Made by a program: the position numbers and the translations under genes. Below the pieces are notes generated by a model. That model was given only the letters and a program-made list of their open reading frames with translations, searched no databases and was not told where the DNA came from. From an uncultured Actinomycetales bacterium (lineage in GTDB: Bacteria; Actinomycetota; Actinomycetes; S36-B12): a DNA stretch of 64,000 nt. The stretch spans positions 1 through 64,000 of the forward strand of contig CAJXYI010000001.1 in NCBI GenBank assembly GCA_913063435.1, written 5' to 3'. This document shows, piece after piece, positions 4,897 through 60,845 of this stretch. Position 1 is the first letter of the stretch. Each line of letters starts with the position of its first letter.

Positions 4897-5993
4897 CAGG
4901 ACCCCTCGCCGGAGTCGTCGTCGCCGATCTGTCCCGTGTGCTCGCCGGCCCGTACGCCACCATGATGCTCGCCGATCTCGGTGCGGAGGTCATCAAGATC
5001 GAGCGCCCTGGCGTAGGAGATGACACGCGAGCCTGGGGTCCACCGTACGCCGACAACGGCCAGAGCACGTACTTCCAAGCCGTCAACCGGAATAAGACCT
5101 CGCGTGCGATCGATCTCACCTCGGTCGAGGGGCAGGAGAAGGTGCGGCAGATCATCGAGCGAGCGGATGTTCTCGTCGAGAACTACAAGCCCGGAGCGCT
5201 CGAGCGGCTCGGTTTGGGCTACGCCGATCTGCACGCCAGGTTCCCGTCACTCATCTACTGCTCCATCACCGGATTCGGATCAGACCGGGGCGCGGATCTG
5301 CCCGGCTACGATCTCCTCGTCCAGGCCATGGGCGGATTGATGAGCATCACCGGCCCTGGCCCCGACGAACCCACGAAAGCCGGCGTCGCGGTCGTGGACG
5401 TCATCACCGGCCTGCATGCCACCGTGGGCATCCTGGCTGCGCTTCGACACCGCGATGCGACGGGCGAAGGGCAGCATGTCGAGGTCAGCCTGCTGACCTC
5501 GCTGCTGTCGGCACTGGTCAATCAGGCATCGTCGGTGGTCGGCGCCGGTGTGGTCCCGCAGATCATGGGCAATGAGCACCCGTCGATCACGCCGTATGCG
5601 GTGTATCGCACCGCGGATCGCCCCATCGTGCTCGCCGTGGGCAACGATCGGCAATTCGCCGCGTTAGTCGACGTACTGGGGGTAGCCGAACTTGCCGTCG
5701 ATGATCGGTTCGCGACCAATCCCGCCCGCGTTTCGCATCGCGAGGAGTTGACCGCGCTTCTCGAGCAGCGCCTGAAAGGCGCGGGTGCCGACCACTGGCA
5801 GGACCGACTGCATGCCGTCGGGGTCCCATGCGGTCCCATCAACGACATCGAGCAGGCGATCGACCTGGCGCAGCGGCTGGGTTTGCAGCCCGTAGTCGAC
5901 GCTGGTGGTGTGCCCGGCATCACGAATCCGATCGGCTTCTCCGCCACACCGGCGACCTACCGCAGCGGCCCTCCGGATCTGCCCACCGAATAG
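4893..5993 (+). CDS. Family III (CaiB/BaiF) CoA-transferase, probably succinyl-CoA:glutarate type
   Basis: Moves CoA between acyl-CoA and a carboxylic acid. The 366-aa protein opens with the family start PLAGVVVADLSRVLAGPYATMMLADLGAEV and has the catalytic aspartate at Asp169 (AVVDVITG), the position of Asp169 in formyl-CoA transferase. It starts at GTG 4893 inside the upstream stop. The next gene is a glutaryl-CoA dehydrogenase 91 nt downstream. That pairing (transferase plus GCDH) is known for glutarate use, so glutarate is the inferred acceptor. Substrate is not readable from sequence alone; other dicarboxylates remain possible. Confidence 0.85.
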   Translation: MTGPLAGVVVADLSRVLAGPYATMMLADLGAEVIKIERPGVGDDTRAWGPPYADNGQSTYFQAVNRNKTSRAIDLTSVEGQEKVRQIIERADVLVENYKPGALERLGLGYADLHARFPSLIYCSITGFGSDRGADLPGYDLLVQAMGGLMSITGPGPDEPTKAGVAVVDVITGLHATVGILAALRHRDATGEGQHVEVSLLTSLLSALVNQASSVVGAGVVPQIMGNEHPSITPYAVYRTADRPIVLAVGNDRQFAALVDVLGVAELAVDDRFATNPARVSHREELTALLEQRLKGAGADHWQDRLHAVGVPCGPINDIEQAIDLAQRLGLQPVVDAGGVPGITNPIGFSATPATYRSGPPDLPTE

Positions 5994-57796: not shown

Positions 57797-58378
57797 ATGG
57801 GATTCCTAGACGGACTTCTGGGGCGCCGCAAGCCCGTGCGTCCGAACCTCGATGCGTTGTTCGCGGTGCCCTCTGCCGCGATCACATTGCAGGTGAGCAT
57901 GGACTTCGTATCGACAGGTCAGGGCGCGGTTGCCTTCCGCTCCGTCGAAGGACGCGCTATGGCCGATGTTGAGGCGGAGATCACCGAGTTGCTCAATGCC
58001 GATGGCGGCCCGCCCGTCCGGTTGACGACCGATTCGTTCGGGTACACGTGGCTGATCGTGTCTGAACCCGAACCCGATGTCTCGGCGATCGTCACCGACC
58101 TGCATGCGGTGAACAGCACACTTGCCGACCACGGATTCGCCCCGCAGCTGCTGTGCTCGATCGTGCCGTTCCGCGATCCTGAGGGCGCCACGCTCGCCCT
58201 GGTCTACCTATACAAGCGGGGGACGTTCTATCCGTTCGTCCCCGAGGTCGGTAGTGAGGAGCGGCGCGACAACATCACTGAATTGAAGGTGCGTGATCTG
58301 CTGACCGGTGAATTGCCCTGGGAAGCGGATCTGTCCCGGTGGTTCCCGGTCTGGGGTGCTCCGACTCTCGGCAACTGA
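57797..58378 (+). CDS. pspAB: PspA-associated protein PspAB
   Basis: 193-aa cytosolic protein; the start MGFLDGLLGRRKPV, the middle SVEGRAMADVEAEITELLN and the end FYPFVPEVGSEERRDNITELKVRDLL plus LPWEADLSRWFPVWG are typical of the PspAB family. Molecular role unknown; probably works with PspA and HtpX in membrane stress. It ends near the palindromic repeat at 58437, which likely stops transcription. Confidence 0.86.
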   Translation: MGFLDGLLGRRKPVRPNLDALFAVPSAAITLQVSMDFVSTGQGAVAFRSVEGRAMADVEAEITELLNADGGPPVRLTTDSFGYTWLIVSEPEPDVSAIVTDLHAVNSTLADHGFAPQLLCSIVPFRDPEGATLALVYLYKRGTFYPFVPEVGSEERRDNITELKVRDLLTGELPWEADLSRWFPVWGAPTLGN

Positions 58379-58436: not shown

Positions 58437-58502
58437 TTAGTCGCTGAGATGGTCGCCCTTTCGGCGATTAGTGAGGCAAAGGGCGACCCTTCCAGCGACC
58501 AA
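58437..58502. repeat. Palindromic repeat copy 1 (66 nt)
   Basis: Starts TTAGTCGCTGAGATGG and contains the inverted arms GGTCGCCCTTT (58451-58461) and AAAGGGCGACC (58478-58488), with outer bases also able to pair. It matches copy 2 at 59571-59636 at 61 of 66 positions, same orientation. It ends 10 nt after (minus-strand sense) the stop of the AbiEi/DUF559-like gene and lies between convergent genes, so it may act as a terminator. Confidence 0.75.
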
Positions 58503-58512
58503 AGCCGAAGCG

Positions 58513-59520
58513 CTATCGCCAGCGTGAGCGGCGCCGGGCTCTGATGGCCGAGATCACCGACCGAGGGTCGGTGAAGAACTGACCTGCCGCCCATCGCACC
58601 GTGTCGATCCCCACGCCGGCGAGTGCGAGGTCGCGACGCTTCTCCTTCCGCAGAGCCTGTGCCCCATCGGCGCCTTCGTACTTCAACAGTCCATCGCATT
58701 CGCCGGCGAGGTAGTCATCGAAGAGGAAGTCAAGGCGACGGGCTGTGCCGTCGGAATCGATCACACGCCATTGGAGGCCACGGATGGGGATGCCCGCTGA
58801 CAGGAAATGTCCGCGCGCGAATGATTCAGCGGGGGATTCGGCCAGAGGGGAAGTCGCCGCTGCAGCGTGCCTCAAGCGCGCGACCCCGTGGCGCCGCTTG
58901 GCGCTGCGGACCTGCTCGCTCAACTCGGCCATCGCCCATGCCATCGGCTCGGAAAACTCGACTACCTCGTGATCGGGGAGGTCCGGGCGCCCGGCGAGGG
59001 CGAGCACGCGCTGTCTCATGACGTGATCGAGCGCCATCAGGCCGATGGGCAGCGAGGATCGACGAGCTAGATCGCAGGCGGTACGCCAGGGCGACGTGGT
59101 CATCAGTCCGTCGACGGTGACGACGTCATCTGCCGTCACCGTGCCGCGATGTCGAAACAGCCCGGGATGGCGTCGAGGCGCTGCGTGGTAGCCGTGGATA
59201 TCGCGAGGGATCCCTGCGAGCAACGGGATGCCGAGGAGAAAGGCTGCGGTGTCGTGGCTGAACACCAGATCGTCATGAGTGGTGGCCATGGCGGAGATGG
59301 CGTCGAGGTGCGCCTCCCGTGCCGACAGGCCATCGACATGCGTCACGGTGACCACGCCGTGGGAGACGCGGGTGATCGTGCCGGCAGCCACAGCGGCACG
59401 CAATTGCCCTCGTGTCAGGCCAGCGGAGAGGGCGTCATGGACGGAAGTGGGCCGACCATGACTGATGGCGAGCAGGTGGCGTGCAGTGTCCTGAGGAGCC
59501 ATGGGGGCAGCGTCGCCCAA
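58513..59520 (-). CDS. AbiEi antitoxin-like N-terminus with DUF559-type nuclease-like domain
   Basis: 335 aa. The first 130 residues look like the AbiEi antitoxin winged-helix/linker (LTRGQLRAAVAAGTITRVSHGV, then HDTAAFLLGIPLLAG). The C-terminal part (PAESFARGHFLSAGIPIRGLQW, DFLFDDYLAGECDGLLKYEG, LRKEKRRDLALAGVG) resembles DUF559/PD-(D/E)xK nuclease-fold proteins. No toxin partner (AbiEii-like) is adjacent. It is flanked by the two palindromic repeats. Such fused proteins are common in Actinobacteria; an alternate ATG at 59502 is possible. Function unknown. Confidence 0.72.
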   Translation of the reverse strand: MGDAAPMAPQDTARHLLAISHGRPTSVHDALSAGLTRGQLRAAVAAGTITRVSHGVVTVTHVDGLSAREAHLDAISAMATTHDDLVFSHDTAAFLLGIPLLAGIPRDIHGYHAAPRRHPGLFRHRGTVTADDVVTVDGLMTTSPWRTACDLARRSSLPIGLMALDHVMRQRVLALAGRPDLPDHEVVEFSEPMAWAMAELSEQVRSAKRRHGVARLRHAAAATSPLAESPAESFARGHFLSAGIPIRGLQWRVIDSDGTARRLDFLFDDYLAGECDGLLKYEGADGAQALRKEKRRDLALAGVGIDTVRWAAGQFFTDPRSVISAIRARRRSRWR

Positions 59521-59570
59521 AAAGCGGTCACCCTGCAGAATCCATCCACAACCTGCACCGGATAGCAGCC

Positions 59571-59636
59571 TTAGTCGCTGAGGTGGTCGCCTTTTCGGCG
59601 ATTAGTGGGGCAAAGGGCGACCCTTCGGGCGACCAA
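59571..59636. repeat. Palindromic repeat copy 2 (66 nt)
   Basis: Begins TTAGTCGCTGAGGTGG; 61 of 66 bases match copy 1. Arms GGTCGCCTTTT and AAAGGGCGACC still pair apart from one bulge. It lies 10 nt after the nadA stop (minus strand), exactly the spacing of copy 1 from its gene, which points to a role in 3'-end formation or to a mobile repeat inserted at gene ends. Confidence 0.75.
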
Positions 59637-59645
59637 CGCCGGGTA

Positions 59646-60845
59646 TCAGTCGACCGGAGCGGTCGAGGTTGCGACCCCCGGAAGCGCCAGCATCCGATCG
59701 AGCGCGACGCGAGCCCAGTGCGCGGTGTCGGGATCGACGGTGATCTGATTGACAACGCGACCCTCGACCAGATTCTCCAGTGACCACACCAGGTGCGGGA
59801 GATCGATGCGGTTCATCGTCGAGCAGAAGCACACCGCTTTGTCGAGGAACACCACCGTCTTGTCCGGGTGGCGCAATGCCAGTCGGCGGACCAGATTCAG
59901 TTCCGTACCCACGGCGAACGCCGAGCCCGCGGGAGCGGCATCGATGGTGGCGATGATGAATTCGGTCGAACCGACCAGGTCGGCCTTGTTGATGACCTCG
60001 TGACGGCATTCGGGGTGGACGAGCACGGTGATCCCGGGCATGCGATCGCGCACATCATCGACGGACTCTGCGGTGAACCTGCCGTGCACGGAGCAGTGGC
60101 CCTTCCACAGCAGCATGCGCGCCGACCGCGCCTGCTCGATGGTCAGCCCGCCATCGGGCTTGTGCGGATCCCATACGACGCAGTCCTCGAGGGACATTCC
60201 CAGATCGCGTACTGCGGTGTTGCGGCCCAGATGCTGGTCGGGCAGGAACAGCACGCGCTCACCTCGTTCGAAAGCCCATTCCAACGACCGCCTCGCATTG
60301 CTCGAGGTGCAGATCGAGCCCCCGTTGCGACCGGTGAATGCCTTGATGTCGGCCGAGGAGTTCATGTAGGTGATCGGAATCGTGCTGTCCGCCAAGTCCC
60401 AACGGGTGAGGGTCTGCCAGGCCTCATCCACCTGATGCATCGCGGCCATATCGGCCATGGAGCAGCCGGCGGCCAGATCGGGCAGGATCACCTGCTGATG
60501 GTCGGCGGTGAGGATATCGGCGCTTTCGGCCATGAAGTGCACACCGGCGAATACGACGAACTCCGCCTCGGGTCGGGCAGCTGCCTGCTGGGAGAGCTTG
60601 AATGAATCACCCGTCACGTCGGCGAACTGGATGACTTCGTCACGCTGATAGTGGTGGCCGAGGATGAACACCCGGTCTCCCAGTGCAGCCTTCGCAGCCG
60701 CGGCGCGAGCGACGAGGTCGGGATCGCTTGCCGGCGGGAGATCACCGGGGCATTCCACCCCGCGCTCGCTGTCGGGATCGGCGTCCTGGCCGAGCAGCAG
60801 CAGTGCCAGCGGTGTCTTATCGGGTTCGACGAAGGACTGCGCCAT
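59646..60845 (-). CDS. nadA: Quinolinate synthase
   Basis: 399 aa from ATG 60845. NadA condenses iminoaspartate with dihydroxyacetone phosphate to quinolinate, using a 4Fe-4S cluster. Conserved segments: ILGHHYQRDEVIQFADVTGDSF, the cysteine of AAGCSMADMA, and CFCSTMNRIDLPHL. The Fe-S ligands lie in the AGCSM, PECRHEV and CFCSTM segments. The nadB/nadC partners are not adjacent. It diverges from the glycerate kinase, with 68 nt between starts. Confidence 0.92.
   Translation of the reverse strand: MAQSFVEPDKTPLALLLLGQDADPDSERGVECPGDLPPASDPDLVARAAAAKAALGDRVFILGHHYQRDEVIQFADVTGDSFKLSQQAAARPEAEFVVFAGVHFMAESADILTADHQQVILPDLAAGCSMADMAAMHQVDEAWQTLTRWDLADSTIPITYMNSSADIKAFTGRNGGSICTSSNARRSLEWAFERGERVLFLPDQHLGRNTAVRDLGMSLEDCVVWDPHKPDGGLTIEQARSARMLLWKGHCSVHGRFTAESVDDVRDRMPGITVLVHPECRHEVINKADLVGSTEFIIATIDAAPAGSAFAVGTELNLVRRLALRHPDKTVVFLDKAVCFCSTMNRIDLPHLVWSLENLVEGRVVNQITVDPDTAHWARVALDRMLALPGVATSTAPVD

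What the first reader, a model, noticed from the sequence alone, without database searches (positions are those of the whole stretch)
58437..59636. Palindromic repeat family placed 10 nt after stop codons
Copies at 58437-58502 and 59571-59636 match at 61 of 66 bases, have the same orientation, and both begin exactly 10 nt past a minus-strand stop. Inverted arms could fold as 3'-end hairpins. This looks like a REP-type family used as or inserted at terminators, possibly not described in this lineage.
Basis: partly seen in the sequence, partly recalled or inferred. Interest (0 to 1): 0.55.

Follow-up and report, generated by a model that had tools for sequence, protein, structure and literature searches.

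The report
Double-palindrome intergenic repeat family, 15 copies
The two repeats are part of a family of at least 15 intergenic copies, each made of two palindromes a fixed 31 bases apart and all exactly 66 bases long; the sites checked are empty in sister species, so this is a small, spreading, REP-like repeat rather than a set of transcription terminators.

Summary
The two copies are real (61/66 identical, same orientation), but the stop-codon gaps are 10 and 9 nt, not 10 and 10. The genome (2.5 Mb actinobacterial MAG) holds 15 full copies. Fourteen came from an end-to-end pattern with a free gap of 40-70 nt; all are exactly 66 nt. Anatomy: GCGTTRGTCGC...GCGACYAACGC around two 35-bp palindromes (core GGcNGCC) whose centres lie 31 bp apart. 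One or two single-palindrome copies also exist. All copies are intergenic (one touches a gene's stop codon), in convergent, tandem and divergent spaces, with no fixed stop distance and no T-tract. In every locus that could be compared, congeners lack the element. The AbiEi-like gene between the two window copies is missing there as well. No RAYT/Y1 transposase was found. A related genus has three copies with GTCGAC arms and the same geometry, one of them in the same PspAB/nadA gap. Conservation sits in symmetric letters without covariation across the long hairpin, which fits DNA recognition better than a terminator RNA. Best reading: a lineage-specific REP/BIME- or MITE-like non-autonomous palindromic repeat. 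Its mobiliser, and any function of the resident copies, are unknown.

The parts
58437..58502 (+). Copy c2 of the 66-nt double-palindrome repeat
58437..58471 (.). Unit A (35-bp palindrome) of copy c2; symmetry centre at 58454
   Evidence: symmetry centres computed over the copies
58468..58502 (.). Unit B (35-bp palindrome) of copy c2; centre at 58485, 31 bp from unit A
59571..59636 (+). Copy c1 of the 66-nt double-palindrome repeat
59571..59605 (.). Unit A of copy c1; centre at 59588
59602..59636 (.). Unit B of copy c1; centre at 59619
58437..59636 (.). Block repeat - AbiEi-like gene - repeat, absent in all three congeners, where PspAB and nadA are neighbours
58513..59502 (-). 329-aa AbiEi-like (antitoxin/regulator N-terminus) protein gene between the two copies; possible longer TTG start at 59520
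   Evidence: Pfam AbiEi_4 22.3 bits, below its cut-off of 25; PADLOC AbiEi E 4.7e-15; ORF
57797..58378 (+). PspAB gene, left neighbour, conserved in congeners
   Evidence: PF22742 E 9.6e-70
59646..60845 (-). nadA (quinolinate synthase), right neighbour, conserved in congeners
   Evidence: PF02445 E 7.5e-97

Best explanation
The repeats belong to a lineage-specific, REP/BIME- or MITE-like non-autonomous palindromic element. Shown: one element is 66 nt (72 with its GCG/CGC ends) and consists of two 35-bp palindromes, TTRGTCGC(N)GGcNGCC(N)GCGACYAA, offset by 31 bp, about three helical turns. At least 15 copies occur, all in intergenic DNA, and in every locus that could be compared the congeners lack the copy, so the family has spread in this lineage. 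Inferred: an enzyme acting in trans recognises the symmetric terminal words (GCGTTRGTCGC) and the GGcNGCC cores as DNA (duplex, or an extruded or single-stranded hairpin) and spreads the element. Copies survive where they do not break genes. Resident copies may also be a paired docking site for a dimeric DNA-binding protein, which would explain why spacing and symmetric letters are kept while other positions drift. They are not primarily transcription terminators.
For: 14 matches to TTRGTCGC-N40..70-GCGACYAA, all exactly 66 nt, with 0 in the reversed control and expectation about 0 in simulation; a 15th copy from similarity and model searches. Three symmetry centres 15.5 and 31 bp apart; conservation mirrors about the centre (r 0.79) and repeats at a 31-bp shift (r 0.39). 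One clear single-unit 35-nt copy and one diverged one. Intergenic in all 15, one (c13) just overlapping a gene's stop codon. Empty or clearly shorter sites in congeners at the c1/c2, c3, c5, c6 and c10 loci. Essentially no copies in 59 relatives except diverged homologues in G010. Invariant symmetric letters, long-hairpin covariation not above shuffles. Column 11/72 is purine/pyrimidine in all copies without complementing, as expected for recognition by a protein.
Against: No mobiliser identified: no Y1 transposase, and no lone GCGTTRGTCGC end outside copies in 260 kb of own-genome DNA. No target-site duplication could be read, because flanks are too diverged. Copy number is low for REPs. The unit-level hairpins show pairing above shuffles (0/500), so a hairpin role is not excluded. 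One G010 homologue lies in the same PspAB/nadA gap, which could mean ancestral presence and loss at that site.
Confidence: 0.6

Rival explanations
1. A dispersed, selected binding site for one DNA-binding protein (global regulator or nucleoid/chromosome-organising protein), not a mobile repeat. Two dimers bind on the same DNA face, 31 bp apart.
For: Fixed length without any indel in 15 copies of median identity 70%; symmetric invariant letters; centre spacing of about 3 helical turns; R/Y column without covariation.
Against: No common theme in neighbouring genes; copies also lie between convergent genes; a 72-bp site arising de novo at many places is unlikely without copying, and congeners lack it; c1 and c2 are 92% identical.
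Confidence: 0.22
2. The repeats are transcription terminators or mRNA 3'-end hairpins.
For: Strong predicted hairpins on both strands. Nine of 15 copies lie within about 35 nt of a gene's 3' end. In c3, c4, c6 and c13 the flanks lengthen the stem with different sequences.
Against: No T-tract terminator found; copies between divergent starts, c3 lying 12 and 25 nt from two start codons; long-hairpin covariation absent; no Rfam match.
Confidence: 0.1
3. The repeats are recombination sites that bound mobile gene cassettes, loosely like integron attC or pdif modules.
For: The 1.2-kb block repeat-AbiEi-like gene-repeat is absent in three congeners. On contigs C91 and C72 copies and single units flank PIN/Phd and PemK toxin-antitoxin genes, and four full copies lie on three short contigs.
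Against: Most copies are solitary. The ends read GTTRGTC...GACYAAC, the inverse of attC order (RYYYAAC...GTTRRRY; recalled consensus). No recombinase was examined. Toxin-antitoxin genes are common in any accessory region.
Confidence: 0.08

Closest known systems
REP / BIME / REPIN (GTAG- and CGTC-tagged repetitive extragenic palindromes; PMC3733652, PMC2817692, PMC3116915)
   Same: 20-40 bp palindromic unit (35 here), intergenic, mostly paired as dimers, some copies inside longer flanking palindromes, sequence specific to a lineage, dispersed copies.
   Different: Only about 15 copies; both ends symmetric, with no unpaired GTAG or CGTC tag; no RAYT/Y1 transposase found; dimer spacing invariant and units fused with a 4-bp overlap; not biased to a fixed stop distance.
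MITEs (Correia, RUP, Nezha type)
   Same: Short, terminal inverted repeats, intergenic, empty sites in relatives, no coding capacity.
   Different: No target-site duplication or parental transposon with these ends could be shown; exceptionally short with a fully palindromic interior.
Untagged REP-like palindromes (e.g. reported in M. tuberculosis, cited in PMC3733652)
   Same: Actinobacterial REP-like repeat lacking the tag motifs.
   Different: Sequence not compared here; the double-unit 31-bp architecture is not described in what I read.
Integron attC sites
   Same: About 60-bp imperfect palindromes, some next to toxin-antitoxin genes.
   Different: Core-site order inverted; most copies not between cassettes; no integron integrase sought or found.

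Membership tests
Tagged REP (GTAG/CGTC) | 20-40 bp palindromic unit in extragenic DNA | tested here: met
   35-bp units, 15 of 15 copies intergenic, one touching a stop codon
Tagged REP (GTAG/CGTC) | unpaired GTAG or CGTC tag at one end | tested here: not met
   both ends symmetric GCGTTRGTCGC/GCGACYAACGC
Tagged REP (GTAG/CGTC) | high copy number (often >100) | tested here: not met
   15 full copies plus a few partial ones
Tagged REP (GTAG/CGTC) | RAYT (Y1 transposase) associated (GTAG class) | tested here: not met
   PF01797 search of own genome: no match, 94% complete MAG
BIME/REPIN | units paired at regular spacing | tested here: met
   two units, centres 31 bp apart in all 15 copies
MITE | terminal inverted repeats and dispersed copies with empty sites | tested here: met
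MITE | target-site duplication | tested here: inconclusive
   flanks show no common direct repeat; congener sites too diverged for exact junctions
MITE | parental transposon sharing the ends | tested here: inconclusive
   no lone terminal word in 260 kb of own-genome DNA; rest of genome not scanned for it
Intrinsic terminator | GC-rich hairpin followed by T run, downstream of genes | tested here: not met
Integron attC | RYYYAAC...GTTRRRY ends with cassettes and IntI | tested here: not met
   ends are GTTRGTC...GACYAAC, compared with a recalled attC consensus; IntI not searched

The most novel reading that the evidence does not exclude
The 66-nt double palindrome is the recognition and recombination site of an undescribed system in this lineage of uncultured Actinomycetota that moves small gene cassettes (AbiEi-like, PIN/Phd, PemK genes). 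Solo copies would be empty sites, and the [repeat-gene-repeat] block in the window an inserted cassette.
Probability: 0.07. Interest if true: 0.8.

Novelty: new variant of a known kind. Interest (0 to 1): 0.42.

Why it matters
Tagged REP families are catalogued mainly outside Actinobacteria and are tied to RAYT transposases. A compact, geometrically rigid double-palindrome family that spread after congeners split, in a genome where no Y1 transposase was found, raises the question of what copies such repeats. If the fixed 31-bp spacing reflects protein docking, it points to an unknown DNA-binding protein.

Tried and rejected
Rfam search of the region: nothing. BLAST and a sequence model in 59 relatives: no close copies; most weak hits are coding chance. 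A GTDB-wide pattern scan returned 8 stretches that were not this 72-nt family; the Lake MAG hit in L077 lies inside a gene. Viral contigs: none. Longer arrays of units: none. Association of all copies with AbiEi-like genes: not seen. RAYT: absent.

Full report
OBSERVATION. The copies at 58437-58502 and 59571-59636 are present, in the same orientation, 61/66 identical, with imperfect inverted arms. Shuffles give no such pair. The distances to the minus-strand stops are 10 nt (AbiEi-like gene, stop at 58513) and 9 nt (nadA, stop at 59646).

FAMILY. A BLAST-type search of the own genome (2.52 Mb, 100 contigs, 94% complete) found five clear copies. The end-to-end pattern TTRGTCGC-N40..70-GCGACYAA found 14, every one exactly 66 nt, with zero in the reversed control and zero expected in simulated DNA. 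A sequence-only model confirmed 15 full copies: those 14 plus C15:37735, whose right arm reads CCGACCAA. It also found partial ones. Copies are C1:58437 and 59571, C12:30135, C13:17935, C15:37735, C16:31447, C29:5419, C34:2504 and 12960, C39:8554, C41:19526, C56:3449, C72:763 and 2215, C91:2367.

ANATOMY. Over the copies there are three symmetry centres, at positions 17, 32.5 and 48 of 0-65. The element is therefore two 35-bp palindromes offset by 31 bp. The outer words extend to GCGTTRGTCGC and GCGACYAACGC in most copies, and each palindrome has a GGcNGCC core. Information content mirrors about the centre (r 0.79) and repeats at shift 31 (r 0.39). A single-unit 35-nt version exists on C72 near 5896, a diverged single unit on C91 near 3157, a truncated duplicate of c13 at C72:1338, and a variant long hairpin at C3:62720. 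Pairwise identity has median 70%; c1-c2 is the closest pair at 92%.

POSITION. All 15 copies are intergenic; c13 just overlaps the stop of a PIN-domain gene. They lie in convergent, tandem and divergent spaces. Copy c3 sits between two start codons 12 and 25 nt away. Nine lie within about 35 nt of a 3' end, the others do not. Neighbouring genes share no theme (PspAB, nadA, amidase, cydA, aspS/rarA, GntR and others). No T-tract terminator is present at the window sites.

EMPTY SITES. In all three congeners PspAB and nadA are directly adjacent, with 24-44 nt between the aligned parts; both repeats and the gene between them are missing. At the c10 and c3 loci the sister genome has 10 and about 23 nt where the window's genome has 106 and 103 nt. 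At c5 a congener has no spacer, against 132 nt. At c6 the space is about 53 nt shorter, while a conserved stretch to its right is retained. The family therefore expanded in this lineage; which event (insertion or loss) happened at each site is inferred from the agreement of congeners.

RELATIVES. The model found essentially nothing in 59 relatives except G010, of another genus in the same family. G010 appears to be the same assembly as the MAG VGBL01000009.1 (K_Offshore_40m), since the matches fall at the same coordinates. It holds three homologous elements with GTCGAC arms at identical spacing (GTCGAC-N17-GTCGAC-N25-GTCGAC). One of these is in the same PspAB/nadA space as the window pair. Either this space is a favoured target or an ancestral copy was lost in the congeners; I cannot decide.

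DNA OR RNA. For the long hairpin, pairing does not exceed shuffles (196/500; covariation 97/500), and the paired arms are invariant rather than compensating. Column 11/72 is always purine/pyrimidine yet pairs in only 8 of 15 copies. For the two short hairpins pairing exceeds shuffles (0/500), but that control does not remove relatedness. I read this as recognition of symmetric DNA, with a hairpin role for single units left open.

MOBILISER. No Y1/RAYT transposase (PF01797) is in the genome. No lone terminal word appeared in 260 kb of own-genome DNA outside copies. Mechanism of spread is therefore inferred, not shown.

KNOWN KINDS. By architecture this is closest to REP dimers (BIME/REPIN) and MITEs. 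It fails the tagged-REP definition (no GTAG/CGTC tag, low copy, no RAYT; compare PMC3733652), so I do not file it as a tagged REP. It works like a REP/MITE: short, palindromic, intergenic, lineage-specific.

Noticed in passing
own-genome contigs C42, C54, C27, C3, C72, C91, C56 (L181-L184, L063-L065): A second palindrome, TGTTTCCGCGGAAACA, has 12 copies (up to 1 mismatch) in the genome, three of them 36 nt apart on C42. On C72, C91 and C56 it (or its core TTTCCGCGGAAA) lies within about 30 nt of the 66-nt repeats or single units. It resembles the parS/Noc-site format (recalled, not tested).
   Followed up: partly
L063 (C72), L064 (C91), L065 (C56): Three short contigs, two of them rich in toxin-antitoxin genes, carry 4 full copies and 3 partial or single units, far denser than the rest of the genome; perhaps one accessory island.
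   Followed up: partly
L078, L080, L081: An Oscillospiraceae MAG (Lab288P3bin200) has an unrelated 84-nt palindromic element GCGTTAGTCGCAGAATC...GATTCTGCGACTAACGC in three copies, each flanked by ...CATTCTGC / GCAGAATG... .
   Followed up: no
L073 around 5330-5430: Beside copy c6 the intergenic stretch before a predicted transporter gene is almost identical in a congener and looks like a TPP riboswitch (recognised by eye; Rfam not run there).
   Followed up: no
L058 1500-1580: In G010 the GTCGAC-type element is followed by a tandem repeat with a 31-nt period, the same as the unit spacing.
   Followed up: partly
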